From: Gammaproteobacteria bacterium
GTDB lineage: Bacteria; Pseudomonadota; Gammaproteobacteria; Steroidobacterales; Foliamicaceae
NCBI GenBank assembly: GCA_028821145.1
Contig: JAPPHC010000074.1
Location: 1 to 37,682 of the forward strand
Direction: 5' to 3'
DNA: 37,682 bases
The translations under genes were made by a program, and so were the position numbers. The notes under the pieces were generated by a model that saw only the letters and a program-made list of their open reading frames with translations, did no database searches and had not been told where the DNA came from. Shown here piece after piece: positions 10,033 through 37,682 of the stretch. Position 1 is the stretch's first letter; each line of letters opens with the position of its first letter.

Positions 10033-10065
10033 TTCCCCGGAAAACATCCAACAGGAGAAGTTCGC

Positions 10066-12237: not shown

Positions 12238-12263
12238 GTAACGAGAACTCCAAGCGCTCGTTA

Positions 12264-12288
12264 CAGGCGCCCTGAGTGAGGGCGCCTG
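12264..12288 (+). terminator. Strong hairpin after the TonB receptor gene
   Basis: A perfect 10-bp stem, 12264-12273 with 12279-12288, closes a GAGTG loop 26 bp after the receptor stop codon. It is very GC-rich, but no T-tract follows. It may terminate transcription, protect the 3' end, or be half of a REP-like element with the hairpin just downstream. Confidence 0.5.
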
Positions 12289-12296
12289 CCCCGGGA

Positions 12297-12317
12297 GGGA
12301 GGGCATGTCGCCCTCCC
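12297..12317 (+). promoter_or_regulatory. Hairpin enclosing the MFS start codon
   Basis: GGGAGGGC (12297-12304) pairs perfectly with GCCCTCCC (12310-12317), leaving the loop ATGTC, which contains the proposed start codon. The left arm also contains the only purine-rich ribosome binding site. The element resembles the palindrome at 24995-25011, so it could be a REP-like unit. Confidence 0.5.
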
Positions 12318-13627
12318 CCCTCCAACCCATGAGCCGCAGGAGTTGGTACGTCGTCGGCGTCCTCACGGTCGCCTACATCTGCTCGTTCATCGACCGCTCG
12401 GTGCTGGGCCTGATGGTGGGCCCGATCCGCGCCGAACTGGGCATCAGCGACACCCAGTTCAGCCTGCTGCACGGCTTCGCCTTCGCGATCTTCTACACGC
12501 TGCTGGGCATTCCCATCGCCTGGCTGGCCGACCGCGCCAGCCGGCGCAACATCATCGCCGCCGGCATCGCCGTGTGGAGCCTGATGACCGCGCTGTGCGG
12601 CCTGGCGCGCACCTTTGGCGCGATGTTCATGGCCCGCGTGGGCGTGGGCGTGGGAGAAGCGGCGCTGTCGCCGGCCGCCTACTCGATGATCGCCGACCTG
12701 TTCCCGCGCGAGAAGCTCGGCCGCGCGCTGGGCATCTACTCGTCCGGCGTGTTCATCGGCATCGGCCTGAGCTTTATCCTGGTGGCCGAACTGATCGGCG
12801 CCCTGGACACGGTGACCCTGCCGGTGGTGGGCGAACTGACGCCCTGGCGGCTCACGCTCATCGTGCTGGGCGTTCCCGGCCTGGCGATCGCGGCGCTGTG
12901 CTTTACGTTTCGCGAACCGGCCCGCCTCGGGGCCGCGAAAGGCGGCGTCCCGCTGGGCGAAGTCGGCCGCTTCTTCGGGCAGAACTTCAGCCTCTACGCG
13001 CTGCATTTCATCGCCTTTTCCATGCTCACGCTGTTGTTCAACGCGGTGATGGCCTGGTTCGCCGAGTACCTGATCCGGATCCACGACATGGACCGGGGCG
13101 ACGCCGGCTGGTACATCGGCCTGATCGTGACCTTCTTCGGCGGCGGCGGCATCATTTGCGGCGGGCTGCACGGCGACTATCTCAAGCGCCGCGGCGACAA
13201 TGGCGGCGCGATCCGCTCGGCGCTGCTGGCGGCCTGCCTGCTGCTCCCCTTCGGCGCCGCCGCCACGCTGATGCCGAACGCCGGGCTCTCCCTGCTGCTG
13301 TGCGCGCCGCTATTGTTCTTCTCGAGCTGGGTGTTCGCGCCGGCCACCGCCGCGTTGCAACTGTTCTCTCCGCCGGCTATGCGCGCGCAGTTCTCCGCCG
13401 TCTATCTGTTCGTCGTCAATCTCACCGGGATCGGATTCGGCGGCACCGCTGTGGCGCTGATTACCGACTTCGTGTTCCGCGACGACGGCATGCTGCACTA
13501 CTCGATCGCCATCGCGGCCGCCTTGAGCGGCGCCGTAAGCGTCATCCTGCTGTGGCGGCTGCTCGGCATCTACCGGCGCGGCATGGACGATCGTGAACGG
13601 CAACTCGCCGCCGAGGCCGCGTCTTGA
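12305..13627 (+). CDS. MFS transporter, Spinster-like
   Basis: A 440-residue inner-membrane carrier with about twelve hydrophobic segments. The major facilitator loop signature is clear: LADRASRRN between helices 2 and 3, and ARVGVGVGEAALSPAAYS in helix 4, as in Spinster-type and organic-acid/aromatic carriers. The ATG at 12305 has a GGGAGGGAGGG ribosome binding site but sits in a hairpin loop. The ATG at 12329 gives MSRRSWYVVGV, which aligns better with the paralogue downstream, so the start is uncertain by eight residues. Its stop overlaps the next gene as TTGA. A close paralogue lies just beyond the VOC gene. Probably a proton-coupled importer or exporter of a small organic compound used by the neighbouring enzymes; the substrate is unknown. 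Confidence 0.9.
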   Translation: MSPSPLQPMSRRSWYVVGVLTVAYICSFIDRSVLGLMVGPIRAELGISDTQFSLLHGFAFAIFYTLLGIPIAWLADRASRRNIIAAGIAVWSLMTALCGLARTFGAMFMARVGVGVGEAALSPAAYSMIADLFPREKLGRALGIYSSGVFIGIGLSFILVAELIGALDTVTLPVVGELTPWRLTLIVLGVPGLAIAALCFTFREPARLGAAKGGVPLGEVGRFFGQNFSLYALHFIAFSMLTLLFNAVMAWFAEYLIRIHDMDRGDAGWYIGLIVTFFGGGGIICGGLHGDYLKRRGDNGGAIRSALLAACLLLPFGAAATLMPNAGLSLLLCAPLLFFSSWVFAPATAALQLFSPPAMRAQFSAVYLFVVNLTGIGFGGTAVALITDFVFRDDGMLHYSIAIAAALSGAVSVILLWRLLGIYRRGMDDRERQLAAEAAS

Positions 13628-14400
13628 GCCGGATCGTGCTGGACATCGACCACGTCGGCCTGGTGGGGCCGGACATCCTGCACACCGTGGCCGAGTTCCG
13701 GGCGCTGGGCTTTCGGGTCACCGATCCCGTCGAGCTGATGGGCACCGGACCCGACGGAAAGGAGAAAAGCCTGGATCAGCAAAGCGCGCATTTCATCTTC
13801 GGCTCGACCTACGTGGAAATCAGCGAGGTCACGCGCCCCGGACCGGACCACCACCTTGGCGCCTGGCTGGGCGACGAGCCGGCCATCCGCATCTTGATCC
13901 TTCGCGCCGCGGACATCGACGCCGTCCGTGAGCACGCATTGGAATCCGGACAGGATCCCACGCCCGTGGGCGAGGCCAGCCGCGCGCTGCACTACGCCGA
14001 AGGCGCGGTGGCGCGCTTCAAATGGCTGGCGCTGCCGCCGGAGACCTTCCCCGAAGCGCTGTGCTGCTACGTTCAGCACCTGACCCCGGAACTGGTGTTC
14101 TGGCAGGAGATGAACGCGCATCCCAACGGCGCGGTCGAACTGACCGGCATGACGCTGCACGCCGCGGACACGGGCGATGCCGAGCGCCGTTTCGCGCTGC
14201 TGGGCCGCGCGGGTGCGCCGGAACAGATCGACATCCGCCCGGCTGAAGATGGCCGAAGCGGCTTTACCGCCCTGCACCTGCGCACGCGCAGCCTGGACCG
14301 GACCGGCGACGTGCTGGCCGCCGCCGGCAAGCCCTTCAAGCGCGACGCGGCCAGTCTCACTGTCGCCGCCCCAGGCGTCCTCCTCGAGTTTCACGAATAA
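13624..14400 (+). CDS. VOC-superfamily (glyoxalase-like) protein
   Basis: A 258-residue protein beginning at a TTG that overlaps the MFS stop. It has two vicinal-oxygen-chelate modules. The first opens with LDIDHVGLVGPDI and contains FIFGSTYVEISEV; the second includes CYVQHLTPELVFWQE, GAVELTGMTLHA and LLEFHE at the C-terminus. The early His in DHVGLV and the glutamates in VEISE and LEFHE are plausible metal ligands. The length and the YVQHLTPE segment resemble the glyoxalase-like PF13468 group rather than true glyoxalase I. It may be an isomerase, dioxygenase or binding protein. Being sandwiched between two MFS paralogues suggests action on the transported compound. The exact reaction cannot be assigned. 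Confidence 0.78.
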   Translation: MSRIVLDIDHVGLVGPDILHTVAEFRALGFRVTDPVELMGTGPDGKEKSLDQQSAHFIFGSTYVEISEVTRPGPDHHLGAWLGDEPAIRILILRAADIDAVREHALESGQDPTPVGEASRALHYAEGAVARFKWLALPPETFPEALCCYVQHLTPELVFWQEMNAHPNGAVELTGMTLHAADTGDAERRFALLGRAGAPEQIDIRPAEDGRSGFTALHLRTRSLDRTGDVLAAAGKPFKRDAASLTVAAPGVLLEFHE

Positions 14401-25188: not shown

Positions 25189-26343
25189 ATGCACCGGATA
25201 ACACGCAGGCAATTGGTACAGGGGATCGGTGCGGCCGGCGTTGTGCTGCCGGGAAGCTGGCCGGGGGCATGGGCACAGGCTGCAACGACTTCCGATCCCG
25301 GGCTGATCCTCGGCAAGGGTCCGCCCGGCTGGTGCGACGAAGCCAAGAACGGCGGCGCGACGGTTCGCTGGAACGAGGACGACCAGGCCTGGTGGATGTG
25401 GTACTACGCGCGCGACAACAACTATCCCGAGGGCGTGGCGCCTGCGTTCGGCACCGGCCGCATCGCACTCGCCAAGTCGGCGGACGGCATCTCATGGGAA
25501 CGCTACAAGGGCCATCTGACGGGCGGCGCGATCATGGACTGGAGCAGCAACCCGGACGACTTCGATTCCACGCACATCGGCAGCGGCGACATCCTGCGGC
25601 ACAACGACGAGTGGCTGCTCTGGTACTTCGGCGGCGACAGCACCACGCCGACGGAACTGGGCGGATACCCGGTGTCGGAGGGCTACCAGTTCAAAGGCTA
25701 TCGGTGTCGGCCGGGCGTAGCGCGCAGCAGGGATGGCATCCACTGGACGCGGATTCGAGGCGCCGCGACCGGCGGGGCCTCGGTGGACATCGGCGACAAC
25801 ATCTACGGCGCCTTCCCCAACGGGATACACGACGGCGACCGCTTCCTGATGTACTACACGACGCTGTCGCCCCGCATCGTTTACTGGGAAACGAAGGTCG
25901 CCGAGTCAACCGACCTCGTGAACTGGCGGGTGCTCGGGAATATTCAGTGGAGCGCCGACCCGGCCCGCTGGGAACTGGGCGGATCGAACACGCGCCACAT
26001 CCTGCCGAACCCCGATCCTGACGGGCGACGCTGGCTGATGCTCTACACCGCGCTCGACGCGCGCCTGCCGCGCTATCCGCGCGTGATCGGCGCCGCGGAA
26101 TCGGACGACGGACTGCTCTGGCACCGCAAGTACGACGATCCCATTCTGCACATGGGCCCGATCAACAATTTCGACAGCGGCGGCGTCGCCTACCCTCAGC
26201 TCGTGCCGCACGACGACGGCCGCCTGTTCCTCTACTACTACGGCTTCGCGCACATCCTGAACACGATCGAGCCGACCCGCGGGATCGGCCTCGCGATCAG
26301 CGAGACCGGCAAGCTGACCGACTTCCGGCGCGTGCGAACCTAG
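25189..26343 (+). CDS. Tat-exported five-bladed beta-propeller protein (GH43/GH32-like fold)
   Basis: A 384-residue protein. The N-terminus has a Tat-type signal, TRRQLVQGIGAAGVVLPG, with cleavage likely after AWA near residue 29. The mature part has five repeats of a Ser-x-Asp-Gly-x-x-Trp pattern: KSADGISWERYK, RSRDGIHWTRIRG, ESTDLVNWRV, ESDDGLLWHRK and a degenerate last one. These are separated by WxxWYxGGD and FLMYYT strands, as in five-bladed propellers of arabinanases, levansucrases and phosphorylases. Several acidic residues sit where such glycosidases have catalytic groups, but the residues cannot be assigned by eye. It has a good GAGGG ribosome binding site. It could be a periplasmic glycoside hydrolase or binding protein. 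The stop overlaps the convergent hydrolase gene by CTAG. Confidence 0.72.
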   Translation: MHRITRRQLVQGIGAAGVVLPGSWPGAWAQAATTSDPGLILGKGPPGWCDEAKNGGATVRWNEDDQAWWMWYYARDNNYPEGVAPAFGTGRIALAKSADGISWERYKGHLTGGAIMDWSSNPDDFDSTHIGSGDILRHNDEWLLWYFGGDSTTPTELGGYPVSEGYQFKGYRCRPGVARSRDGIHWTRIRGAATGGASVDIGDNIYGAFPNGIHDGDRFLMYYTTLSPRIVYWETKVAESTDLVNWRVLGNIQWSADPARWELGGSNTRHILPNPDPDGRRWLMLYTALDARLPRYPRVIGAAESDDGLLWHRKYDDPILHMGPINNFDSGGVAYPQLVPHDDGRLFLYYYGFAHILNTIEPTRGIGLAISETGKLTDFRRVRT

Positions 26344-27245
26344 CGGCCGTTCAGCGACTTCGCGAACTCCGCGATGCGCCGGTTGAACTTCCCGGCGTCG
26401 AACCAGAACGGCATGTTGCCGGAGTCGGCGAAGACGGACACTTCAGCCCGCGGCAGGCGGGCCGCGATCGACTCGATCTGCTCGCGGTTCGCGAGGATGT
26501 CCTGGCCGCCGATGACGAACAGCACCGGCACGTCCACCGCTTCGAACAGGTCGCTGTTGTCCGAGCGGTGCTCGCGATTGAAAACGCGCACGTAGTGGGG
26601 CGTCATCATCGCGGACACCATCAGCATTTGCTTTTCGGCCGGCGGCAGCTCGCCTCCCGCGGTGATCAGGTCCACGTAGCCCTCCGTCCACTCCAGCAGC
26701 GTGGCCGCGTTCGCGGAAGTCGAGCGGGCGATTTGCTGTTCGCGTTCCGGCGTCATCGGCGATTCCGGCCGGGGCACGAACCCGGCGTTGCCGCTCACGA
26801 ACACGATGCCGCCGATCGCATCCGTCCCGTAGTAGCGCACGTAATCGAGCACGAAATGCCCGCCGTACGACCAGGCGACCAGCAGCGGCTTGCCGGCGCC
26901 GGCGCCTGAGCCGCCGGCCTCCATCGCCGCCTTGATGTCATCGGCCCAGAGCTGCATGTCCAGGTAATGCTCCGCCTGCCACGGCTTGGCCGAGGCGCCG
27001 TGGCCGCGCATGTCCAGCGCGGTCAGGTGAAACTCGTCGGCGAGCTCCGATTCCAGTTGCTTCTTCCAATTGAGCGTGCTGCCCAGAAAGCCGTGCACGA
27101 ACACGATCCGCGGCGCATCGGTGGAACCGTTGTGCGTGACCGCGATCGGCAGTCCGCCGCCGCCCTCGACCGTCCCGGTCCGCAGCGCGTCCGCGTGTGT
27201 GCCGACCGAAATCAGCACCAGAAAAAATCCCAGCAGGTAACGCAT
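26340..27245 (-). CDS. Exported alpha/beta hydrolase lacking the expected catalytic histidine
   Basis: A 301-residue alpha/beta-fold protein with an N-terminal signal peptide (about residues 1-19). The oxyanion hole HGFLGS (51-56), the MRGHG stretch and the nucleophile elbow WSYGG (Ser126) are intact, and Asp249 in GGQD is the expected acid. The usual C-terminal GH(M/A)P motif reads SGNMPFWFD, so the catalytic His is replaced by Asn277, a change one base away from His. The protein is therefore either inactive, uses another base, or has gained a binding role. It is divergent from the first DUF1838 gene across about 120 bp and convergent with the propeller gene. Otherwise it looks like a periplasmic esterase or lactonase. 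Confidence 0.88.
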   Translation of the reverse strand: MRYLLGFFLVLISVGTHADALRTGTVEGGGGLPIAVTHNGSTDAPRIVFVHGFLGSTLNWKKQLESELADEFHLTALDMRGHGASAKPWQAEHYLDMQLWADDIKAAMEAGGSGAGAGKPLLVAWSYGGHFVLDYVRYYGTDAIGGIVFVSGNAGFVPRPESPMTPEREQQIARSTSANAATLLEWTEGYVDLITAGGELPPAEKQMLMVSAMMTPHYVRVFNREHRSDNSDLFEAVDVPVLFVIGGQDILANREQIESIAARLPRAEVSVFADSGNMPFWFDAGKFNRRIAEFAKSLNGR

Positions 27246-27366
27246 GGCGTCCTCCAGCCTTCAGCAGACCTTCATTGTCGGCGAACACGGCGTGGCCCTC
27301 AAAATGCCGAATCGACATTCCCCGATAAGCAGGTTTTATGCGACAGGATTACCGTGCCACGATACG

Positions 27367-28338
27367 ATGGAGGTCCACCGCACACGCGAGCATGCAAAAG
27401 CAGGACCCGTGACCCACCTGGCGACCAGCGAGATCAGCCGACGCACCCTGCTCGTCGCGATCAGCGGATTGCTGAGCGGCGCCGCGTTCGCCCGCAGCGA
27501 GGGGGAAGATCCGCAGCCAGGCACTTCCGAGGCCTATACACCGGCGGGATTTCAGCACGCATTGCCCGCGGAGGCGCTTGATGAGCCGCTGGCCACACTC
27601 GAGCAACCCGGTGCGCTGGACCTCGACGATCCCGAGGGCCTGAGACTGGCCCGCATGAAGACCATGTTCAGCCTGAACGGCGACTACGCGTACAGCGCCT
27701 ACATGACCCGGCACTTCGTCATGCCTCCGGACGCGACGCCCTACCCGCTCGTCAACGAACTGGAACTGAACGTGTCCTTCCTCACGACCGGCGGCCCGGA
27801 GTTCCGCGAAGAATACGAGCAAGGCAAACTGATGCTGCACGGCTCGTACACGCGGGTCTTCCTCGATGCCGCCACGCTGCAGACCGTGGACGCGATCGAC
27901 GTGCCGGCCATGAACCGGCAGCTCACGCTCGCGCCCACGCAGTTCGCGCTCAGCATCCCGATGGACCTCGCCCCGATCCCGCACGACCCCACGCTCTCCG
28001 AAGAACTCCGCTGGTACCGCTTCGGCGACGACGTGCACTTCACCAACATCGCCCTTTTCGAACCCAGCGAATCGCGCCCGCCCCGCATGGACACGTCCGT
28101 GTGGCGTGTGAAGCACGCGGACCTGATGGACCCCGCGCATCGGCGGCTCAAGGCCGACTACTCGTTCACCGCGTCGTCCTACGCGGCGCTTTATGCCTGG
28201 ACCGGGCTGGGCGTCGACGACCCCACCCGGGTCGTCACCAGCAAGGCCGGCATCAAGGTGCACACGATCGACGCATTGCCCGCTCTGGTGCGGGAAAGGA
28301 TTCTCGAAAAGCACCCCGAGCGCGTACCCCGCAAATGA
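27367..28338 (+). CDS. DUF1838-family protein, Tat-exported (copy A)
   Basis: About 323 residues. ISRRTLLVAISGLLSGAAFA is a Tat signal peptide, implying folding in the cytoplasm before export to the periplasm. The mature protein shares with copies B and D a beta-rich body, a VWRVKHADLMDP segment, a YSFTA(S) segment and the C-terminal GIKVHTIDALP followed by HPERVP. This matches DUF1838, a family without known function. The ATG at 27367 is used here; GTG at 27409 (twin Arg then at positions 10-11) is also reasonable. A longer frame from 27244 would run through the divergent promoter region. It is followed 22 bp later by copy B. A structural or lipid/steroid-binding role is possible but not supported by any visible motif. 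Confidence 0.75.
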   Translation: MEVHRTREHAKAGPVTHLATSEISRRTLLVAISGLLSGAAFARSEGEDPQPGTSEAYTPAGFQHALPAEALDEPLATLEQPGALDLDDPEGLRLARMKTMFSLNGDYAYSAYMTRHFVMPPDATPYPLVNELELNVSFLTTGGPEFREEYEQGKLMLHGSYTRVFLDAATLQTVDAIDVPAMNRQLTLAPTQFALSIPMDLAPIPHDPTLSEELRWYRFGDDVHFTNIALFEPSESRPPRMDTSVWRVKHADLMDPAHRRLKADYSFTASSYAALYAWTGLGVDDPTRVVTSKAGIKVHTIDALPALVRERILEKHPERVPRK

Positions 28339-28360
28339 CACTCGCAATGAGGACCTTCCC

Positions 28361-29308
28361 ATGAGTGACCACGACGACAACCTCGAAATCAACGAACAGC
28401 GGCGCGACGTCGTGCGTTCGCTCAGCGCCATCGCCGGCATGACCGCCCTGGCCGGCCTGGTCCGCACGGAGATGGCGCTGGCCCAGGACGACGAGAGCGA
28501 CCTGCTCCCCAACGGCCTGCCGAGGTCGTCCCTGTCCGCCGAGCCCGCCGTCGTCGAGTTCGACCGCCCGCTGGACCTCACCGACCCGAGCGACGCCTGG
28601 TACGCGAAGATCAAGGCCACCAACAATCTGGCCGGCGTGAAGACCTACGTGCCGATGTTTTCGCGCGCCTATATCTGCCCGCAGGGCCAGCCGGCGCACC
28701 CGGTGTTCGGCCATTGCGGGATCTGGACCTGGCAGTTGCAGAAGGCGACCACCGACGAATTCGAGGACGCCCGCGAAGGCTCGATGATCCAGCGCGCGCT
28801 ATATACCGGAACGATCCTGGACCCCTACACCTTCGAACCGGTCGAGACGCTCGAAAACCCCTACACCGGCGAGACCATCACGGTGGAGGATTCGATCTTC
28901 GCGATGAACTACCTGCTGCATCCGATGGGCGGCGGCCGCGACATCGACATCGCCGAGTTCTACAACCCCGAGGAGAAGCCGGACACGCCGTACGTGCGGT
29001 TCGGCGACGAGGTCGCGTTCGTGCTGGCCGGCCTGTTCCAGGGCGAAGGCGACTACCAGCCACGGGCCGATTCCTCATGGTGGACCACGAATTACGCGCA
29101 GCTCATCGATCCCGATCAGCCGCTGGTGGAAACGCGCTACAACTTCACCGGACTCATGCGCGCCTGGGAGCGCCCGTGGCTGGGCGTCGAAAAGCCCGAC
29201 CAGACCCAGTTGCTCTGGGCCGTCGAGGGCCGCAAGGTCCACTCCATAGACCGCATCCCCGACCTCCTCCACAAGCACGTCCTCAGCAAGTACGACGACC
29301 GCGTCTGA
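28361..29308 (+). CDS. DUF1838-family protein, Tat-exported (copy B)
   Basis: A 315-residue protein starting at ATG 28361 behind an AGGA ribosome binding site. The N-terminus has a twin-arginine segment (NEQRRDVVRSLSAIAGM) and a hydrophobic stretch ending in MALAQ, so Tat export is likely. NNLAGVKTYVPM, FTWQLQ-like WTWQLQ, GSMIQRALYTGTILDP and ENPYTG align well with copy D at 34428-35432. NYAQLIDP, YNFTGLMRAWERPW and GRKVHSIDRIPD near the end align equally well. Copy A is more distant. The conserved aromatic and acidic residues suggest a binding pocket, but no catalytic motif is known. The gene ends five bases from the convergent fourth DUF1838 gene. Confidence 0.83.
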   Translation: MSDHDDNLEINEQRRDVVRSLSAIAGMTALAGLVRTEMALAQDDESDLLPNGLPRSSLSAEPAVVEFDRPLDLTDPSDAWYAKIKATNNLAGVKTYVPMFSRAYICPQGQPAHPVFGHCGIWTWQLQKATTDEFEDAREGSMIQRALYTGTILDPYTFEPVETLENPYTGETITVEDSIFAMNYLLHPMGGGRDIDIAEFYNPEEKPDTPYVRFGDEVAFVLAGLFQGEGDYQPRADSSWWTTNYAQLIDPDQPLVETRYNFTGLMRAWERPWLGVEKPDQTQLLWAVEGRKVHSIDRIPDLLHKHVLSKYDDRV

Positions 29309-29313
29309 TTGCG

Positions 29314-30105
29314 TCAATACCCGAACGGATCCTCCGCGATTGCCGGGAAGTGCCGCTTGAGCAACTGACGGGAGGATACCGGCAGGTCGTCGAGTGTATA
29401 GAGCTTGGTTCCCTTTGCGCGGGTGTAAAGGCCGCCGGAGCGCCCGCCCATTTCCATCCACGGCAACCAATCCGACACGATCTCGAGCTGAAGCGTGGCC
29501 GCAACGCGAGGCGCTCCCGAGCGAAGATCCGTGGTCCGTCCCCGGTAATCAATAAATTCGATTGAACTGAACGCCGGCGCCTCCGCCGGGTCAGGCGTAA
29601 CCGCCACGCGCTTCTCGACCTGCACCCAGGTGTCGCCTCCGATCGTGCGCGGCGGCTCAATCGACTCGGCGATGCGGATACCGCCCGGTGCCGTGCGTTC
29701 CGACGGCCCGACCTCGGCGTGATACGACGTCACCGCGACGGGCGCGGGCACGATGGCCTCGACCTCCCGCGCAGTGAAAGGGTTGAGCCAGGAATCGAGA
29801 CGTTCGCCGCTCAAGAGGTCGGTGTAGAACACGACTTCCAGCGCATCCACCCGATAGCCGCCCTGCTCCGGATATCGGATCCGCGAGAACCCGATCGTGT
29901 TGGTATTCCACAACGGAGTGAGCGAATTGCCCTCGCGTCCGTACTTGACCCCCAGGATCGACCAGATGACCTCGTCGTCCACCCCCGAATACACCAGCCG
30001 CCGGTACCAGCCCTGCTCTTCCTCCGACAGCCCAACGGAAGCTGCGGCAACACTGCCACCCAAAAGCCCCATCCCAATTATCCAAAGCAAGCGCCGCCGC
30101 GACAT
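29314..30105 (-). CDS. DUF1838-family protein (copy C)
   Basis: A 263-residue member from the MSRRR start, the most typical DUF1838 sequence of the four. Marks are YTDLLSGERLDSWLNPFT, TWVQVEKRVAV, SDWLPWMEMGGRSGGLYTRA and GTKLYTLDDLP. The start SRRRLLWIIGMGLLGGSVAA is a Tat-like or membrane-anchoring signal. An upstream ATG at 30144 would add 13 residues. I prefer 30105 because a palindromic LysR-type site (30143-30157) overlaps that upstream ATG. The gene is divergent from the LysR regulator, the classical arrangement for a LysR target. Function is unknown; the repeated presence of the family around it suggests paralogues acting on related compounds. Confidence 0.82.
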   Translation of the reverse strand: MSRRRLLWIIGMGLLGGSVAAASVGLSEEEQGWYRRLVYSGVDDEVIWSILGVKYGREGNSLTPLWNTNTIGFSRIRYPEQGGYRVDALEVVFYTDLLSGERLDSWLNPFTAREVEAIVPAPVAVTSYHAEVGPSERTAPGGIRIAESIEPPRTIGGDTWVQVEKRVAVTPDPAEAPAFSSIEFIDYRGRTTDLRSGAPRVAATLQLEIVSDWLPWMEMGGRSGGLYTRAKGTKLYTLDDLPVSSRQLLKRHFPAIAEDPFGY

Positions 30106-30142
30106 TGCGCCATAAATTTCGAGATGCGACTTTGACCCAGCC

Positions 30143-30157
30143 ATAATTTCAAATTAT
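30143..30157. promoter_or_regulatory. LysR-type operator (T-N11-A palindrome) with overlapping -10
   Basis: ATAATTT-C-AAATTAT is a perfect 7-bp inverted repeat around a single base and contains TAATTTCAAATTA, the T-N11-A core typical of LysR binding. It lies between lysR and the divergent DUF1838 gene. Read on the minus strand, TATAAT at 30158-30153 could be the -10 of the DUF1838 promoter, so the bound regulator would control it directly. Confidence 0.65.
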
Positions 30158-30179
30158 ATTGATGCGCTCGTTCCCACGT

Positions 30180-31094
30180 ATGAAATTCGATCTCAAGCAA
30201 CTACGGCACTTCGTCTGTGTGGTGGACACGGGAAACATCACGCGCGCGGCCGAACTGCAGTACATCACGCAGCCCGCGCTCACGCGCAGCATCAAGAAGA
30301 TGGAGGAGCGCATCGGCGCGAAACTGCTCGACCGCACGCCCCGCAAGATCACGCCTACCGAGGCCGGACGAGTCCTGTACCGCTACGCCAAGATCATCAT
30401 CAACCAGGCGGAACGCGCACTGCTGGACGTCACAGCCGTTTCCCAGGGCGAGCAGGGCCACGTGCACATCGGCATCGCCGCGCTGTTCTCCCCGACGCTG
30501 ATCAGCCATCTCATCCCTCACTTGTCGACCCGGTTTCCGGGGCTTCACGTGCGCATCACGGAAGGCTTCTTCGAGGACCTCGTAGCCGGGCTGGTCGAAG
30601 GCGAAATCGACGTGCTCCTGTCCAACTTCCCGCCGGGCGTCGTGCCGCCGGACGTGGTGCTCAAACCGCTGTTCGAGATCCGCACGGAGTTCGTGGTGGG
30701 CGCTTCCCATCCCCTTGCATCAAAGGAAAACGTCACGGCAAAGGACCTGAGAGAAGCTCAATGGGCTATCATAAAACAGCCCCATATAGTTGATTTTCTT
30801 GATAAGTTCTTTGCCGAAGAATCGCTGCCCCCGGTCTCGGTGGCGATCGAGGCAACCTCGCTCAACACGCTGAAGTCGCTGGTCCTGCTCGGCCAGTACG
30901 TCGCCATGCTGCCGCGCCGCTGGATTGAGGAAGAGCTGGCGTCCGGCGAAATCAGGACCATCCGCAAGGACGGATCGGCGCTGGTGCGCGAGGCCGGCCT
31001 CATCCTGCGCCAGACCGAAACCCGGCGGCCCACCGTCGAGAACATCATCCCGGTGATCGAGGAGTCCTGCCGCGAGTGGCAGATCGACCGCTGA
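30180..31094 (+). CDS. LysR-family transcriptional regulator
   Basis: A 304-residue LysR regulator. The N-terminal winged helix reads LKQLRHFVCVVDTGNITRAA, then YITQPALTRSIKKMEERIGA and LLDRTPRKITPTEAG, followed by the linker helix. The C-terminal effector domain (about residues 85-300) has the two-lobe periplasmic-binding fold, with HVHIGIAALFSP and FVVGASHPLA in it. ATG 30180 gives the usual MKFDLKQLRHFV; ATG 30162 is an alternative. It faces a DUF1838 gene across a palindromic T-N11-A site and precedes the NmrA-like gene by 25 bp. It probably senses the substrate or an intermediate of the neighbouring pathway. The segment around 30720-30810 is noticeably less GC-rich than the rest. Confidence 0.93.
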   Translation: MKFDLKQLRHFVCVVDTGNITRAAELQYITQPALTRSIKKMEERIGAKLLDRTPRKITPTEAGRVLYRYAKIIINQAERALLDVTAVSQGEQGHVHIGIAALFSPTLISHLIPHLSTRFPGLHVRITEGFFEDLVAGLVEGEIDVLLSNFPPGVVPPDVVLKPLFEIRTEFVVGASHPLASKENVTAKDLREAQWAIIKQPHIVDFLDKFFAEESLPPVSVAIEATSLNTLKSLVLLGQYVAMLPRRWIEEELASGEIRTIRKDGSALVREAGLILRQTETRRPTVENIIPVIEESCREWQIDR

Positions 31095-31119
31095 CACCAG
31101 AAAAAGGAACCACAGAACC

Positions 31120-31974
31120 ATGACCACACTGCTGACCGCCGCCAACGGCAAAACCGGCCGCGCGGTACTCAAGGCGCTCGCAAATCGCGGCGCAGACGTG
31201 AAGGTGTTCCTGCGCAACGAGGCGCAATGGCCCGCTCTGAACGAACTGGGCGCAAGCTCATTCGCCGTCGGCGACATGGAGGACGCATCCACGATCGACG
31301 CCGCGATCAAGTCCTGCGACGGGATCGTCCACATCGGCCCGCCCATGCACCCCAACGAGGTCGAGATCACGCGCCGCTTCATCGACGCGGCGAAGTCCCA
31401 CGGCCTGTCGCGCTTCGTCTATTACTCGGTCATGCACCCGCTCAGGCGCGCGGTGCGCCATCACCGTCTCAAACTCGATGCGGAAGAGGAGCTGATCGAG
31501 TCCGGCCTGCCCTACACGATCGTGCAGCCGATACGCTACATGCAGCACCTGGCGATGATCTGGAAAAAGGTGCTGGACACGGGCGTGCACAACATGCCCT
31601 TCAACGTCGACGTCAAGTTCAACGTCGCCGACCTGCGCGATCTCGCCGAAGCCACGGCCATCGTGGCCACGGAGCCGGGCCACCTCTACATCACCTACGA
31701 GCTGGCGGGTCCGGAAGCCCTGAGCCAGCGCGACATGGCCGCCGTGATCAGCCGCGTGCTGGGCCGGGTAATCCGCGCCGAAGCGCTGAGCCTGGAGCAG
31801 GTCGAGAAGAACGCCCGCAAGGCCGGTGCGAGCGACGACCGGGTTGAGCAGATGCTCATCATGAACGGGCATTACGACCGGTACGGCTTCCGCGGCAACC
31901 CCAACGTGCTGCGCTGGATCCTGGGCCGCGAACCCAACACCTACGAGAACTACGTAAAACGCCTCGCCGGATAA
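31120..31974 (+). CDS. NmrA-like NAD(P)-binding protein
   Basis: A 284-residue atypical extended-SDR protein. The nucleotide-binding loop TAANGKTGRAVLKAL is at the N-terminus. VKVFLRN follows, as in NmrA/YwnB proteins that bind NAD(P)(H). SRFVYYSVMHPLRRA contains a Tyr-Ser-Val stretch, but the classical YxxxK active site is not obvious. LPYTIVQPIRYMQH and ADLRDLAEATAIV complete the NmrA signature. Such proteins either reduce substrates or serve as redox-sensing regulators. It follows the LysR gene and precedes the second TonB receptor. The C-terminus (about 250-284) contains RGNPNVLRWILGREPNTYENYV, resembling isoflavone-reductase-like proteins. Reductase and sensor roles cannot be separated here. 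Confidence 0.87.
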   Translation: MTTLLTAANGKTGRAVLKALANRGADVKVFLRNEAQWPALNELGASSFAVGDMEDASTIDAAIKSCDGIVHIGPPMHPNEVEITRRFIDAAKSHGLSRFVYYSVMHPLRRAVRHHRLKLDAEEELIESGLPYTIVQPIRYMQHLAMIWKKVLDTGVHNMPFNVDVKFNVADLRDLAEATAIVATEPGHLYITYELAGPEALSQRDMAAVISRVLGRVIRAEALSLEQVEKNARKAGASDDRVEQMLIMNGHYDRYGFRGNPNVLRWILGREPNTYENYVKRLAG

Positions 31975-31998
31975 CCCCGGGAGCGCTTCCAGGACATC

Positions 31999-32047
31999 AG
32001 TTCGGCGTATGTCCTTATGCCTATTTCGCATCAGAACGCGCCGAACT
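31999..32047 (+). promoter_or_regulatory. Long-arm inverted repeat before the second TonB receptor
   Basis: AGTTCGGCG (31999-32007) and CGCCGAACT (32039-32047) are perfectly complementary across a 31-nt loop, 25 bp after the NmrA stop and 42 bp before the receptor start. The arms could be an operator for a dimeric regulator or a leader stem. No clear -10/-35 pair is visible. The rest of 31975-32089 shows only the ribosome binding site. Confidence 0.4.
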
Positions 32048-32089
32048 ATGAATTACACTTTGGGTGCGGTTTGCTCGGGAGGATTCAAG

Positions 32090-34423
32090 ATGGCCAATCA
32101 TGCAATTCGGACTCGCATAGAGAGCCTTGCAGAAACTCGGACGCGTCTGGTCTTGCCCTCCCTGATGGCGGTCGCCGCCCTCCTCGCGGGCGACCTTGCA
32201 CTGGCGCAGGACGACGGCCAGCTCGAAGAAATCGTCGTCACCGCGCGCAAGCGCACCGAGAACCTCCAGGACGTCCCGCTGTCGATCACCGCGATATCCG
32301 GCGTCGACCTGGAACGCGCTTCGGTTTATGCGCTCGATGACCTGGCCGAAATTACGCCCGGCCTGACCTATCAGAACATCGGCGCGTTCAACACCCCCAC
32401 CATTCGCGGCCTGTCGCAAACCAGCCAGATCGGCCTGCAGGGCAACGTGGGCGTGTTCATCGACGGCGTGTTCCTCAACAACCGTTCGTCGCTGGAGTTC
32501 GGCGTGCTGGACCTGGAGCGGATCGAGGTGGTCAAGGGGCCGCAGGGCGCGCTCTACGGGCGCAACACCTTCGCCGGCGCCATCAACTACGTCACCCGCA
32601 GCCCTTCGACGGACGACATCGGCGGCAGGCTGTCCGCTGAAATCGGCAACGAGGGCCGCTGGGAGATCGGCGGTTCCGTCAACTTCCCGCTGGGCGAGAA
32701 CGCCGCGGTGCGCGTGTTCGCCGCAACCAGCGAGTTCGACGGCACGGTCACCAACGCACGCGGGGGCGACAAGCTCGGCGGCTACGACGAGCGGACCTCG
32801 TACGGCCTGTCGGCCATTTTTGACCCTTCCGAGAACCTGAGCGTGAAACTGTTCGCCGCGCGCACCGAAGTCGACGAGGACCAGCCGCCGCTGATCCTCG
32901 TGCCGGTAGCGCGCAATGACTGCGGCGCTACCTACAACCTGCCCGACGGCCGCGTATTCAATTCGCTCTACTGCAGCGGACTGCAGGCAGGCGACGCGCC
33001 CAACCTCAACGCGCTGGGCAAGGGCCAGGTCGGCGATTTCACGCTGGCCTACCTCAACGTCGAATACGACCTCGGATTCGCCACGTTGACGGTCAACATC
33101 TCGGACTCCGAATCGGAATACTCCACGCTGGTCGACAACGTGTCCAACCCGGTTGCCGAGACGCTTCCGCTGGGACCGCTGGGCTTTTCGGCGCAGTTCT
33201 TCACCAATTCCGCCGGCGACGTGGCCGAACAGCAGTCCTACGAAGTCCGGCTGGCTTCGAACGACGACGGCCCGCTGGGCTGGCTGATCGGCGGTTCCGT
33301 GTTCAATACGCTCACCGGCAGCGTGCTGTCCAGCGTCTCCACGCTGCTCGCCAACCCCACCGAACTGGGCCGGATTTCGTTCGTGCCGAACCGGCTGGAT
33401 ACCGACGTAAACGCCGTCTTCGGCTCGGTTTCCTACGCCTTTGACGACAGGAACAGGCTGAGCGCGGAGATCCGCTACACCGAGGAAGACCAGTTCCTGG
33501 AGCGCACGGTGATGATCTTCTTCATCCCGAATTTCCCGACCTCCGTGACCTCGGCGGCCTCGGAGTTCAGCTACACGACGCCCCGCGTCACCTACGAGTA
33601 CGCCTGGAACGACGACACGCTGCTCTACGCCTCGGCGGCCCGCGGCGTCAAGTCCGGCGGCACCAACGGCGCGGCGTTTGCCGACACGCCGTATGCGGAC
33701 TACCTGGAGGAATCGAACTGGACCTACGAGGTCGGCATCAAGACGTCGATCCTGGACGGCCGCGGCGTCTTGAACGCCACCGTCTATTCGGTCGACTGGA
33801 CCGACCTGCAGATCCCGGCCCCGCCCGACCTGCAGATCGGCACCGCGATCGTGAACGCCGCCGGAGCGACATCCACCGGCGTCGAGATCGACACCACGAT
33901 CAACCTGACCGACAACTTCACCGTCCGCGCCGCCGCCACCTGGCTGAATCCGGAATTCGACAGCGGCACGGTGGACGCCGCCATTTCACCGCTGTGCGGC
34001 GACCGCGCCGTGATTCCGCCCACCGTGGCGTGCAGCACCGAAGTGGGCGGCCAGCAACTCCCGCGCACCTCCGATTTCCAGATCTATGTGGGCGCCACCT
34101 ACACCTGGCCGCGCGTCATCGGCGATTTCGACGCCTACGTGCGGGTGGACACCAGTCACCAGGCCGGCAAGTACTCGCTGAGCCTCAACCAGCAGGACCA
34201 GGGCGACATCAACCTGACCAACCTGCGGATCGGGCTTGAGTCGGAGCGCTACGAGATCGCGCTCTGGGCGGAAAACGTGTTCGACGAGGAATACAACGAC
34301 CGCGTGACCGTCACGACCGACCCGGCCGCCGGCTTTGCCTGCGCCGGCTGCGGCATCACCGTGGCGCGCTTCTACCCGGGCAACACGCGCACCTTCGGGC
34401 TGCGCGGCACCTGGCGGTTCTGA
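32090..34423 (+). CDS. TonB-dependent outer-membrane receptor, second copy
   Basis: A 777-residue receptor. Start at ATG 32090, seven bases after GGAGG; longer in-frame starts add a leader without signal-peptide character. The signal peptide ends near residue 39 (ALA-QDD) and the TonB box is EEIVVTARK (46-54). The plug has TIRGLSQTSQ and IEVVKGPQGALYGRNTFAG with INYVTRSP. The barrel ends in FGLRGTWRF. It differs strongly from the receptor at 10066-12237 outside the plug, so the ligands probably differ. Four bases later the DUF1838 copy D gene starts, so the two are co-transcribed and perhaps linked in function: import across the outer membrane, then periplasmic handling. Several paired cysteines in the outer loops are unusual for such a receptor. 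Confidence 0.95.
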   Translation: MANHAIRTRIESLAETRTRLVLPSLMAVAALLAGDLALAQDDGQLEEIVVTARKRTENLQDVPLSITAISGVDLERASVYALDDLAEITPGLTYQNIGAFNTPTIRGLSQTSQIGLQGNVGVFIDGVFLNNRSSLEFGVLDLERIEVVKGPQGALYGRNTFAGAINYVTRSPSTDDIGGRLSAEIGNEGRWEIGGSVNFPLGENAAVRVFAATSEFDGTVTNARGGDKLGGYDERTSYGLSAIFDPSENLSVKLFAARTEVDEDQPPLILVPVARNDCGATYNLPDGRVFNSLYCSGLQAGDAPNLNALGKGQVGDFTLAYLNVEYDLGFATLTVNISDSESEYSTLVDNVSNPVAETLPLGPLGFSAQFFTNSAGDVAEQQSYEVRLASNDDGPLGWLIGGSVFNTLTGSVLSSVSTLLANPTELGRISFVPNRLDTDVNAVFGSVSYAFDDRNRLSAEIRYTEEDQFLERTVMIFFIPNFPTSVTSAASEFSYTTPRVTYEYAWNDDTLLYASAARGVKSGGTNGAAFADTPYADYLEESNWTYEVGIKTSILDGRGVLNATVYSVDWTDLQIPAPPDLQIGTAIVNAAGATSTGVEIDTTINLTDNFTVRAAATWLNPEFDSGTVDAAISPLCGDRAVIPPTVACSTEVGGQQLPRTSDFQIYVGATYTWPRVIGDFDAYVRVDTSHQAGKYSLSLNQQDQGDINLTNLRIGLESERYEIALWAENVFDEEYNDRVTVTTDPAAGFACAGCGITVARFYPGNTRTFGLRGTWRF

Positions 34424-34427
34424 CAAC

Positions 34428-35432
34428 GTGGCCGATGAAGCCCGGGCCGCCGCCGCCGTGGCCCCGGACCATCACGATCCCGTAAGACGGAGCATGCTCG
34501 CCGCGATCGGCGGCACACTCGGGGTCCTGACCGCCGGGTCCGCCATCAACTCCCTCTCCGCGCAGGAGGGGGAAAAGGACTCCGAGGGCGTTTACCGGGA
34601 CGGCGTATTCAGTTCCTACTACCGCCCCAAGCGGTTCGAGAACAACGAAATGGACCGGCAGCCCTGGACCGCCGACATAACGGGCAACTTCGACACCAAC
34701 CACCCGTACCACAATCGCCTCGCCCGGATGAAGATGTCCAACAACCTGTCCGGCAAACGCACCTACGTGCCGATGCTGATCCGGAAGGTCCTCGCCCGGC
34801 CCGACATTCCCGGCGGCGTGCTGCTGGGATCCGCCGCGATGTTCACCTGGCAGCTACAGGTTCCGGACCCGGACGAGTTTCCCGATGCGCCGGAGGGCTC
34901 CATGGTGATGCGCACGGTGTATACGGCGCTCTATCTCGACCCGGAGACCATGGAGCCGGTGGAGCGTATCGTGAATCCCTTCAACGGCGTCGCGATGGAA
35001 CTCGAGGACTACCTGTCCATCGAGACCTTTCTGCTGTTTCCGACCGGCGGCTCACGCCTGGTGCAGGAACCGGAATTCATGGACGACGATCCGGACGCCC
35101 CGAAGCTGACCCTGATCAAGCAATGGGGGGATGACGCCGTTCTATTCATGGGCGGCACCTACAGCGAGCCCGGCTTACACCAGCCCCGGTTCACCGAACT
35201 CCAGTGGCGCTGCTCCTACGCCGACCTGATGGACCCTGAAAAGGACCCGATCGAGTCGTATTACAGCTTCACCGGCATCAGCAAGGCCTACGAGAAACCA
35301 TGGACCGGCTACGGCTACGAAGACGGCGAGATGCTGGTCGATTCCGCCATCGGCAAGAAGGTCCATAGCGTCGACGACATCCCCGACTACCACAAACGCG
35401 TCCTCGTAGAAAAATACCCCGACCGCATCTAA
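34428..35432 (+). CDS. DUF1838-family protein, Tat-exported (copy D)
   Basis: A 334-residue protein beginning at GTG 34428, four bases after the receptor stop. The N-terminus has the twin arginine DPVRRSMLAAIGGTLGVLTA with cleavage near LSA. It aligns clearly with copy B: NNLSGKRTYVPM, FTWQLQV, GSMVMRTVYTALYLDP, VNPFNG, CSYADLMDPEKDP, YYSFTGISKAYEKPW, GKKVHSVDDIPD and a final YPDRI. These are the DUF1838 signatures. Tight coupling to the receptor is the best clue to its role, suggesting that the family processes or binds the imported compound in the periplasm. No known catalytic motif is visible. A weak hairpin follows the stop. Confidence 0.82.
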   Translation: MADEARAAAAVAPDHHDPVRRSMLAAIGGTLGVLTAGSAINSLSAQEGEKDSEGVYRDGVFSSYYRPKRFENNEMDRQPWTADITGNFDTNHPYHNRLARMKMSNNLSGKRTYVPMLIRKVLARPDIPGGVLLGSAAMFTWQLQVPDPDEFPDAPEGSMVMRTVYTALYLDPETMEPVERIVNPFNGVAMELEDYLSIETFLLFPTGGSRLVQEPEFMDDDPDAPKLTLIKQWGDDAVLFMGGTYSEPGLHQPRFTELQWRCSYADLMDPEKDPIESYYSFTGISKAYEKPWTGYGYEDGEMLVDSAIGKKVHSVDDIPDYHKRVLVEKYPDRI

Positions 35433-36111: not shown

Positions 36112-36366
36112 ATGGCAAAACGCGCAAGCCTGTTGATCAGCGAACCCAACGAGAAGTGGATTCAAGCGCAGATCGGCAGCAAGGAATTTTCCAGCCGTAG
36201 CGAGGTGCTGAACGACCTGATCCGTCAGGCGCGGGAGACCGAGGCGATCCGCGAGCGGCTCAAGTTGGCGGAAACGTCGACTAAAGAGCGTGGTTGGGTG
36301 ACAACAACGCCGGATGAAATGCTGGACGGCTTCAAGGAAAGCGCCCGTCGAGATGGCGAAATATAG
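36112..36366 (+). CDS. parD: ParD-family antitoxin
   Basis: An 84-residue ribbon-helix-helix antitoxin. The N-terminal strand ASLLISEPNEKWIQ, the helix QIGSKEFSSRSEVLNDLIRQ and the RQARETEA continuation match type II ParD/CopG-like proteins. The C-terminal half (TTTPDEMLDGFKESARRD) is the flexible toxin-binding region. GGAGG lies nine bases before the ATG. It overlaps the toxin gene by 14 bp, the usual coupling in which antitoxin is made first. An inverted repeat upstream is a plausible self-repression site. It would neutralise ParE, a gyrase-directed toxin, and stabilise this region during replication. Confidence 0.88.
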   Translation: MAKRASLLISEPNEKWIQAQIGSKEFSSRSEVLNDLIRQARETEAIRERLKLAETSTKERGWVTTTPDEMLDGFKESARRDGEI

Positions 36367-36640
36367 ACTCGCTCCCGAAGCGGAAGCCGACTTATATCGT
36401 ATTTGGCTCTACGGCGCGCGGCAGTGGGGAATCGCCGCTGCCGACAACCATTACAGGGCATTTCACGAACGTTTCGAAGCGATCGCGGCCAACCCACTGC
36501 AATATCCGGCCGTGGACCATATTCGCGAGGGTTACCGCCGCAGTGTGCTCGGCAGGGACAGCATCTATTTTCGGGTTGACGGCGAGACATCGGAGATCAT
36601 GGCGATCATCGGACAGCAGAACCTCGATGAATGGCTTTAG
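36353..36640 (+). CDS. parE: ParE-family toxin
   Basis: A 95-residue RelE/ParE-superfamily protein. It starts MAKYRLAPEAEADLYRIWLY and continues QWGIAAADNHYRAFHERFEAI, NPLQYPAVDHIREGYRRSV and GRDSIYFRVD, matching ParE in order and length. ParE toxins inhibit DNA gyrase; RelE-type ribonuclease residues are not evident, so ParE is the better call. The ATG lies inside parD, 14 bp before its stop. Intact length and motifs suggest a functional pair. Its location next to a segment with direct repeats and tiny ORFs suggests recent acquisition, an inference. Confidence 0.88.
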   Translation: MAKYRLAPEAEADLYRIWLYGARQWGIAAADNHYRAFHERFEAIAANPLQYPAVDHIREGYRRSVLGRDSIYFRVDGETSEIMAIIGQQNLDEWL

Positions 36641-36661: not shown

Positions 36662-37682
36662 ATGAGAACTACTCTGAAGTTCGCTGCGCTTGCAACGGTG
36701 TTTATGCCGGTTGCTGGCGCACTGGCGGCTGGCTCCGGGGTGTTTGATCTGGAGATTGGGGATTCGGAGCGGAAGGGGCGGCACGCTCCGTTGGTGCTTG
36801 ATGGCATTACCGACGCCGCTACCGGTGATCTCCTGAACCCGCGGGAACTGGCGGAGCGGCTGGCCGATACGCGCATACTCTTTATTGGTGAGGACCACAC
36901 CGACATGGACTTTCACCGGGTGCAGGCGAGAATCCTGGAAGAGCTGCACCGCGCCGGTCGCGAGGTGATGATCGGGCTGGAAATGTATCCGTATACGCGC
37001 CAGGCAAGCCTCAACGACTGGAGCGCCGGCTCGCTGACCGAGGAAGAGTTTGTCGAATCGTCCGACTGGTACGAGAACTGGGGTTATCGCTGGGACTACT
37101 ACCGGCGCATCTTTCTGTTCGCCAGGGACAACGGCATCCCGATGTTCGGCGTGAACGTTCCGCGCAACTATGTAAGAACGGTGCGCACGGAGGGCTTCGA
37201 GGGATTGAGCGCCGAGCAGGCTGCGTATATGCCGGAGTCCGTGAACACAAACAGCGACGAGCACCGGCAGTTGTTCCGCGCCTATTTCGCGGAAGACGAC
37301 GCACTGCACGCGGCCATCAGCGAAGAGCAGTGGGAAGGCATGTTCCGGGCGCAGTGCACCTGGGACGCGGCGATGGGCTGGAATGCGCAAATGGCGCTCG
37401 AACAGCACGGTGGCGAGGACGCCATCATGGTGGTGCTGATCGGAGCGGGCCACGTCACCTACGGCCTGGGCGCCGAACGTCAAATCACCGATGCGTTCGA
37501 CGGCCGGATCACTTCCCTGGTGCCGGTACCGATACGCGACGGCGACAACGAACCGGTGCACGAGGTAAGGGCTTCGTACGCCGACTTCATCTGGGGCGTG
37601 CCGCCCGAAACCGAACCCGCGTATCCCAGCCTGGGCGTTTCGCTGATGGGCGCCGTGGGCTCGTCCCCGACCAGCGTCATTC
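36662..37682 (+). CDS. ChaN-like haem-binding uptake protein, 3' end beyond the window
   Basis: The open frame from ATG 36662 runs past the right edge (340 codons visible). A signal peptide is present at residues 1-20 (FAALATVFMPVAGALA) with no lipobox. The ChaN/Tiki-superfamily domain follows: ILFIGEDHTDMDFHRVQ, LEMYPYTRQASLNDWSAG, and WGYRWDYYRRIFLFARDNG with IPMFGVNVPR. Further on, VVLIGAGHVTYGLG supplies a conserved His near the presumed haem site. The final visible part, about residue 300 on, has SLGVSLMGAVGSSPTSV, possibly the start of a PDZ-like extension seen in some relatives. Members bind haem or act as metal-dependent proteases at the cell surface. No ribosome binding site is visible. 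Confidence 0.85.
   Translation, partial: MRTTLKFAALATVFMPVAGALAAGSGVFDLEIGDSERKGRHAPLVLDGITDAATGDLLNPRELAERLADTRILFIGEDHTDMDFHRVQARILEELHRAGREVMIGLEMYPYTRQASLNDWSAGSLTEEEFVESSDWYENWGYRWDYYRRIFLFARDNGIPMFGVNVPRNYVRTVRTEGFEGLSAEQAAYMPESVNTNSDEHRQLFRAYFAEDDALHAAISEEQWEGMFRAQCTWDAAMGWNAQMALEQHGGEDAIMVVLIGAGHVTYGLGAERQITDAFDGRITSLVPVPIRDGDNEPVHEVRASYADFIWGVPPETEPAYPSLGVSLMGAVGSSPTSVI

What the first reader, a model, noticed from the sequence alone, without database searches (positions are those of the whole stretch)
27367..35432. Four DUF1838 genes with LysR, NmrA-like and TonB-receptor partners: candidate undescribed uptake/conversion locus
Within 8 kb there are four members of one unknown-function family. 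Three have Tat signals, and copy C has a Tat-like or anchoring N-terminus. One member is four bases behind a TonB receptor gene and another is divergent from a LysR regulator. Copies B and D align over most of their length, and all four share a C-terminal Gly-x-Lys / (S/T)-(I/V/L)-D-x-(L/I)-P signature. Family amplification next to a receptor suggests periplasmic handling of an imported compound.
Basis: partly seen in the sequence, partly recalled or inferred. Interest (0 to 1): 0.78.

Follow-up and report, generated by a model that had tools for sequence, protein, structure and literature searches.

The report
Conserved DUF1838 uptake and processing cassette
A bacterium carries a conserved gene set that pairs an outer-membrane import receptor and one regulator with several exported proteins of an unstudied family, probably to take in and process a large organic molecule.

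Summary
All four proteins are DUF1838 relatives. Only C passes the Pfam cut-off, but a profile built without them finds A, B, C and D at E 1.8e-14 to 1.4e-38.

They belong to a far larger expansion: 29 DUF1838 genes in this 66%-complete genome, and 13-39 matches per genome in the genus. TonB receptors are so numerous (79 in complete relative G004) that DUF1838 clusters in general lie no nearer to them than chance.

This locus is different. A, B and D form one old subfamily, and each has its own orthologue in another bacterial family (B weakly supported). There the receptor, LysR, NmrA, an exported hydrolase and a GH43-like protein recur with them. In three genomes, the four closest homologues of the window's receptor all sit beside A/B/D-type genes. 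LysR is the only one found in G004. A LysR-type box, ATAA-N7-TTAT, occurs exactly twice in the window, at both divergent promoters, and at the same places in three relatives.

Best reading: a LysR-controlled, TonB-dependent uptake and periplasmic-processing cassette in which DUF1838 beta-barrel-like proteins bind or convert the ligand. Substrate and biochemical role are unknown. C is not part of the wider conserved core.

The parts
25189..26343 (+). GH43-like protein with a Tat-like signal; upstream member of the cassette
   Evidence: PF04616 25.2 bits, below the cut-off of 32.2; orthologues 92-97% in G004, G005, G006 and 51% in G048 C133, in each case near the A-type gene; RR signal
26340..27245 (-). 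exported alpha/beta hydrolase (Sec-type signal, by eye), divergent from A
   Evidence: PF00561 1.3e-21; closest solved chains are hydrolases, haloperoxidase-type proteins and esterases; orthologue 39% in G048 next to the A-type gene
27325..27339 (.). LysR-type box ATAAGCAGGTTTTAT in the hydrolase/A divergent promoter region
   Evidence: ATAA-N7-TTAT occurs 2 times in the window against 0.02 expected; same place in G004, G005, G006
27367..28338 (+). DUF1838 copy A, Tat-like signal
   Evidence: held-out profile E 7.6e-19; A-type orthologue in G048, support 99/91
28361..29308 (+). DUF1838 copy B, Tat-like signal, 22 bp behind A
   Evidence: held-out profile E 3.3e-19; B-type orthologue in G048, support 95/49, weak
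29314..30105 (-). DUF1838 copy C, Tat-like signal, from another DUF1838 branch; divergent from LysR
   Evidence: PF08894 65.6 bits; present in G004, G005, G006 at the same place; separate branch, no G048 orthologue seen
30143..30157 (.). perfect palindrome ATAATTTCAAATTAT (T-N11-A), candidate LysR operator between C and LysR
   Evidence: identical in G005 and G006; in G004 ATAATTCATAATTAT, still palindromic
30180..31094 (+). LysR-family regulator
   Evidence: PF03466 5.8e-37 and PF00126 1.1e-21; its G004 orthologue is the only LysR substrate-domain match at E <= 0.001 in that 3.11-Mb genome
31120..31974 (+). NmrA-like NAD(P)-binding protein, no export signal seen by eye
   Evidence: PF05368 2.4e-24; solved relatives include, not as the best match, polyketide ketoreductase SimC7 and triphenylmethane reductase
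32165..34423 (+). TonB-dependent receptor whose closest homologues in three genomes lie beside A/B/D-type DUF1838 genes
   Evidence: PF00593 1.8e-23, PF07715 1.2e-16; bit scores drop from 539 to 275 after the four nearest homologues
34428..35432 (+). DUF1838 copy D, Tat-like signal, GTG start 4 bases behind the receptor
   Evidence: held-out profile E 1.8e-14; D-type orthologue in G048, support 100/100; structure model mean pLDDT 80, 192 of 334 residues at 90 or more

Best explanation
This is a dedicated uptake and periplasmic-processing cassette of about 10 kb (25189-35432). The TonB receptor imports a bulky organic ligand. Exported proteins act on it in the periplasm: the alpha/beta hydrolase and the GH43-like protein probably cut ester or glycosidic bonds, and the Tat-exported DUF1838 proteins A, B and D bind, shield or convert the (probably hydrophobic) ligand or its fragments, each with its own specificity. 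The NmrA-like protein reduces or isomerises a product in the cytoplasm. The LysR regulator senses a pathway compound and switches both divergent transcription units through two ATAA-N7-TTAT boxes.

Shown: gene families, export signals by sequence, conserved co-occurrence, receptor subfamily specificity in three genomes, old paralogue sets, box conservation within the genus, purifying selection. Inferred: transport of an organic ligand, what each enzyme cuts, ligand binding or conversion by DUF1838, and regulation by LysR at the boxes.
For: Same gene set in another family, in shuffled order (G048 C133). A, B and D orthologues there. Receptor: the four homologues over 500 bits (G004 1545, G048 665, G004 604, G048 539) all lie beside A/B/D-type genes, and the next scores 275. 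Six soluble proteins with export signals plus a receptor in one locus. Only one LysR match in G004, and a LysR-type box at both divergent promoters in 4 of 4 cassettes of the genus. dN/dS 0.05-0.23 for all nine genes in two genome pairs. In G048 the surrounding genes include two FAD aromatic hydroxylases, a PhyH dioxygenase, a succinate-semialdehyde dehydrogenase and a thiolase, as in a degradation pathway, though the last two may be mere flank. NmrA lies within 2 kb of 3 of 20 DUF1838 clusters in G004 against 0.32 expected, p = 0.003. DUF1838 models as a mostly beta, barrel-like domain with high confidence.
Against: No substrate is known. Foldseek against the PDB gives no match at E <= 0.001 for either model (best E 2.5e-3 and 1.3e-3), so neither binding nor catalysis follows from the fold. 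Receptors of this kind also serve iron uptake; the best solved and NCBIfam relatives are siderophore and colicin receptors. In G002 and G007 an NmrA gene stands at the same site without the rest, so NmrA may not belong functionally. In G005 the receptor is cut short and no D is seen, yet A, B and C remain. G004 also holds a decayed B-type remnant (near 166935-167365, pieces in several frames) with no receptor in the 14-kb stretch around it. The boxes are absent from the G048 stretches. The box pattern was chosen after seeing the two sites.
Confidence: 0.6

Rival explanations
1. A, B and D are periplasmic enzymes (for example isomerases, cyclases or hydrolases with a lipocalin-like barrel), not carriers; the cassette is a degradation pathway that begins in the periplasm. 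This is the enzyme half of the best explanation, which leaves the choice open.
For: Three divergent paralogues kept side by side fit successive steps; family-wide charged positions D93 (35/39 rows) and K230 (35/39) in L031 numbering could be catalytic; of ten proteins near DUF1838 genes elsewhere in the genome that I scanned, two are FAD_binding_2, two nitrilase-like and two NmrA-like.
Against: Most family-wide conserved residues look structural (Pro, Gly, Trp, an N-P-x-T-G turn); no conserved triad or metal site was seen by eye.
Confidence: 0.4
2. The cassette belongs to a biosynthetic or detoxifying system: a secondary metabolite is tailored, exported and re-imported, siderophore-like.
For: G048 has two methyltransferases and two FAD hydroxylases within the cassette contig; the one held paper that names DUF1838 lists it in the aurantimycin gene cluster; NmrA matches a polyketide ketoreductase among others; the nearest solved receptors are siderophore and colicin receptors.
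Against: No polyketide or peptide synthase among the Pfam-scanned genes of the window or of G048 C133 (not every gene was scanned); most cassette proteins carry export signals.
Confidence: 0.2
3. Chance: both families are so abundant in these genomes that a receptor with DUF1838 neighbours is expected.
For: 79 plug-domain matches and 29 DUF1838 genes in 3.11 Mb; generic proximity is not above chance.
Against: Orthologous cassette in a second family, receptor-subfamily specificity and the shared box are not explained by abundance.
Confidence: 0.05

Closest known systems
DUF1838 (Pfam PF08894)
   Same: C is a plain member; A, B and D match a held-out profile of 23 relatives, share the C-terminal Gly-x-Lys signature and the Tat-like signal seen in 24 of 29 own-genome paralogues.
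   Different: A, B and D fall below the Pfam cut-off and form their own subfamily tied to one receptor subfamily. No function was found for the family in the papers searched.
TonB-dependent uptake of non-iron organic compounds, such as DdvT of Sphingobium SYK-6 (PMC6874591; title and start of abstract seen in the search listing)
   Same: A TonB-dependent receptor used for a small organic molecule that is then degraded.
   Different: Here the receptor is linked to several exported DUF1838 proteins, a hydrolase and a GH43-like protein; substrate unknown; no sequence comparison with DdvT was made.
Polysaccharide utilisation loci with SusC/SusD pairs (recalled, no call)
   Same: Receptor plus dedicated exported partners and a local regulator.
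   Different: No SusD-like protein among the nine cassette proteins; DUF1838 proteins carry Tat-like signals and are probably periplasmic. The GH43-like protein is below the Pfam cut-off.
LysR-regulated divergent catabolic operons (recalled, no call)
   Same: Divergent LysR, T-N11-A palindrome in the shared promoter.
   Different: Two boxes serve two divergent promoter regions 2.8 kb apart; binding untested.

Membership tests
DUF1838 (PF08894) | Score over the curated Pfam cut-off of 25 bits | tested here: inconclusive
   Met by C (65.6 bits); not met by A, B, D (12.8, 18.4, 21.9). They are therefore called a divergent subfamily, not plain members.
DUF1838 (PF08894) | Homology to other members by an independent profile | tested here: met
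   Profile of 23 own-genome paralogues without the window copies: E 7.6e-19, 3.3e-19, 1.4e-38, 1.8e-14 for A-D; best of 800 shuffles 1.9
TonB-dependent receptor | Plug and beta-barrel domains | tested here: met
   PF07715 1.2e-16, PF00593 1.8e-23
TonB-dependent catabolic uptake locus | Receptor transports the compound that the neighbouring enzymes degrade | not testable with these tools
   needs transport and growth assays
TonB-dependent catabolic uptake locus | Conserved linkage of one receptor subfamily with the processing genes | tested here: met
   The four homologues over 500 bits in G000, G004, G048 lie beside A/B/D-type genes; next best 275 bits. Exceptions to strict linkage: cut receptor in G005, decayed B-type remnant in G004
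LysR-type regulator with adjacent operator | HTH_1 and LysR_substrate domains, T-N11-A palindrome in the divergent promoter | tested here: met
   binding itself not tested
SusC/SusD polysaccharide utilisation locus | SusD-like surface lipoprotein next to the receptor | tested here: not met
   None among the nine cassette proteins (Pfam)
Glycoside hydrolase family 43 | PF04616 over its cut-off | tested here: not met
   25.2 bits against 32.2 for 25189-26343; called GH43-like only

The most novel reading that the evidence does not exclude
DUF1838 is a class of Tat-exported beta-barrel proteins that take over or process hydrophobic ligands delivered across the outer membrane. A, B and D are the dedicated partners of one receptor subfamily: a third kind of receptor partner beside SusD-type lipoproteins and periplasmic siderophore-binding proteins, in a family expanded to about 30 copies per genome in one bacterial lineage.
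Probability: 0.2. Interest if true: 0.78.

Novelty: new variant of a known kind. Interest (0 to 1): 0.55.

Why it matters
A family with no function found in print here is present in 13-39 matches per genome in one genus, mostly with export signals. This cassette gives a foothold for its function: it ties a defined DUF1838 subfamily to one receptor subfamily, one regulator and two operator candidates, which can be tested with purified proteins. If the receptor's ligand is found, the role of the whole family becomes testable.

Tried and rejected
Generic DUF1838-TonB association: tested in complete genome G004 and rejected.

Recent tandem amplification of four copies: rejected by the tree, although DUF1838 genes do cluster in G004 (7 gaps under 2 kb against 0.5 expected).

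Fold assignment: Foldseek with the D model (PDB and viral) and with the L031 model (PDB) gave no coherent match. PDB: nothing at E <= 0.001; weak hits include LolA, microsomal triglyceride transfer protein, AttH, LmcA, PsbO, ApoB and DynF. Viral: one entry at 5.2e-4 with TM-score 0.10, taken as meaningless. The PDB profile hit on tyrosinase partner MelC (8e-5) covers the Tat signal and the start of the domain only; taken as signal-peptide similarity.

A/B/D-type genes elsewhere: in the order, 23 of 246 genomes match the A/B/D profile at E <= 1e-8, but only five (G000, G004, G005, G006, G048) score over 130 bits; the rest lie at 34-64 bits, as expected of other DUF1838. In the class sample, 1 of 369, the own genome. 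In G048's family, 1 of 5, G048 itself. The genome-contig scan gave 2 loci, which are G004 and G005. D has no match in the plasmid collection. In one search at most 8 candidates per genome were scored and at most 5, so absences are not absolute.

Habitat: the two named relatives (VYBN01000046.1, OX639965.1) are recalled as likely sponge-associated; two searches for the bin names did not confirm it, nor did passages of PMC9531527.

Literature: DUF1838 is named in one held paper, of which I saw one passage, and PF08894 in none.
Full report
WHAT IS THERE. The window (G000:C24, 37,682 bases, 66% G+C) lies in a 2.22-Mb genome in 83 contigs, 66% complete. Upstream lie an exported alpha/beta hydrolase (26340-27245, minus strand) and a GH43-like protein with a Tat-like signal (25189-26343), and both recur with the cassette.

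ARE ALL FOUR DUF1838? Pfam accepts only C; A, B and D are below the cut-off. NCBIfam has no match for any. A profile from 23 other paralogues of the same genome, window copies held out, finds all four, far above 800 shuffles; unrelated neighbours reach 0.012 at best. All four have twin-arginine N-termini and the Gly-x-Lys signature. So the family claim holds, with A, B and D as a divergent subfamily.

GENOME-WIDE PICTURE. The own genome holds 29 DUF1838 genes (28 gene calls, one of them a wrong-strand call replaced by two plus-strand genes). By eye 24 of 29 have a twin-arginine N-terminus and 5 a Sec-type one; the rough regular expression counted 21 of 28 gene calls. Nine genomes of the genus have 13-39 matches; 24 of 58 genomes, own included, have any (matches are places, and some genes give two). 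In complete relative G004 (same length as OX639965.1, 3,114,442 bases) I count 29 genes in 20 clusters: 25 from the Pfam search after merging split matches, plus A, B, D and one more A/B/D-type gene. G004 has 79 receptor plug domains, 11 NmrA and 1 LysR. With random placement of the clusters, receptors within 5 kb: 6 of 20 observed, 5.0 expected, p = 0.38 (within 2 and 3 kb: 1 of 20 each, 2.4 and 3.3 expected; within 8 kb: 9, 7.3 expected). NmrA within 2 kb: 3 of 20, 0.32 expected, p = 0.003 (0.01, 0.03 and 0.09 at 3, 5 and 8 kb); this count includes the present locus. So the general receptor link fails, and a modest NmrA link holds.

THE CASSETTE IS CONSERVED IN PART OF THE GENUS. G004 and G006 have the whole set, 78-98% identical per protein. 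G005 has it up to a receptor cut to 297 residues, with an IS1595-type transposase gene nearby and no D. In G004, D is inverted and lies before the receptor. dN/dS is 0.05-0.23 for nine genes against G004 and G006. At the same chromosomal site G002 and G007 have NmrA (86-88%) but not the rest, and G003 has other genes. The A/B/D profile gives only weak single matches in G001, G002 and G007 and none in G003 and G008. For G001 and G008 the site was not found, and G008 has a 91% piece of the GH43-like gene on a 3.1-kb contig, so its state is undecided.

SECOND FAMILY. G048 (same order, other family) carries on contig C133: receptor (44%), an A/B/D-type DUF1838 and a further one, receptor (44%), FAD hydroxylase, NmrA (58%), FAD hydroxylase, two methyltransferases, LysR (40%) divergent from B (45%), two hydrolases (one 39% to the window's), A (36%), GH43-like (52%), MFS_2, beta-lactamase-like, PhyH, D (58%), aldehyde dehydrogenase, amino acid carrier, thiolase. 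In the tree of 46 proteins A, B, D and relatives form one side of a branch (99/97 with the long-branched G48_n3; 90/67 without), with G048 orthologues for A (99/91), B (95/49, weak) and D (100/100); C is on another branch. The three-paralogue set is thus older than the split of the two copies of the cassette, whether that was by descent or by transfer.

RECEPTOR SPECIFICITY. Searched with the window receptor, G000, G004 and G048 give 51, 61 and 58 match places (some receptors give two). Apart from the window itself, four score over 500 bits: G004 at the orthologous cassette (1545), G048 C133 twice (665, 539; the second cut by the contig end), and G004:2433597 (604), which lies 3 kb from a further A/B/D-type gene with an IS110-type transposase between. 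The next scores 275. Neighbours of the lower-scoring receptors were not all examined. Intact A/B/D-type genes were found only at the places named. One exception to strict linkage: a decayed B-type remnant in G004 near 166935-167365, pieces of B in several frames, with no receptor match in the 14 kb around it.

REGULATION. In G004 the LysR of this locus is the only LysR substrate-domain match. ATAA-N7-TTAT (a T-N11-A box; LysR rule recalled) occurs twice in the window against 0.02 expected, at 27325 and 30143, in the two divergent promoter regions. The cassette stretches of G004, G005 and G006 (L065, L066, L067) hold it at the same two places and nowhere else. The inner bases vary in G004 while the ends stay. 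The pattern was picked after inspection of these sites, so 0.02 is not a clean probability; conservation with changed inner bases is the better evidence. Single matches also occur in five other fetched loci, two of them elsewhere in G004 (L033, L050, L069, L074, L079). The G048 stretches have none.

STRUCTURE. The D model has mean pLDDT 80, with 192 of 334 residues at 90 or more; the canonical member L031 has pLDDT 91 and pTM 0.87. Both are mostly long strands with C-terminal helices, read as a barrel from the order of strands, not from coordinates. Foldseek against the PDB shows nothing at E <= 0.001. Family-wide conservation is mainly of structural residues, with one Asp and one Lys.

JUDGEMENT. 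A real, conserved, receptor-coupled cassette with a family of unknown function at its centre. Uptake and periplasmic processing of a bulky organic compound is the most economical reading; DUF1838 as binder or as enzyme is open. The general idea (TonB-dependent uptake for organic compounds) is known; this composition was not found in the papers searched.

Noticed in passing
G004 (OX639965.1), whole genome: 79 TonB plug domains and 29 DUF1838 genes but a single LysR match in 3.11 Mb: strong expansion of receptors with very few LysR regulators.
   Followed up: partly
L040:7813-8604 (-), L046:8738-9529 (-), and in G004 L078:8152-8943 (-), L079:6930-7724 (+): NmrA-like NAD(P)-binding proteins with what look like export signals lie directly beside DUF1838 genes at two further loci, in both genomes.
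   Followed up: partly
L033:8741-9862 (+), L035:3571-4725 (-): Nitrilase-like (CN_hydrolase) proteins with Tat-like signals near DUF1838 genes at two separate loci.
   Followed up: no
L075 (G048 C175), L077 (G009 C32): Further clusters with a GH43-like protein, receptor, LysR and methyltransferases with a small partner protein, but no DUF1838 in the stretch: perhaps a wider class of receptor-linked islands.
   Followed up: partly
L069:6935-7365 (G004 near 166935-167365): Decayed remnant of a B-type DUF1838 gene, pieces in several frames, with no receptor match in the stretch.
   Followed up: partly
window 3916-14400: A second receptor (10117-12237) with hydantoinase A/B, MmgE/PrpD, two transporter-like genes and a glyoxalase-like protein: another possible uptake and degradation island.
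   Followed up: no
L066 about 10390-10505, L065 about 12940-13030, L067 near 6450-6500: Repeated GGAGGGCGGGACGCC-type elements lie between genes of the cassette in relatives, in G005 and G006 close to the conserved LysR box.
   Followed up: no
window 36112-36640: Two small ORFs that look like a ParD/ParE-type pair (by eye; the first is 89% conserved in G004), followed by a ChaN-like haem-binding protein (36704-37682).
   Followed up: no
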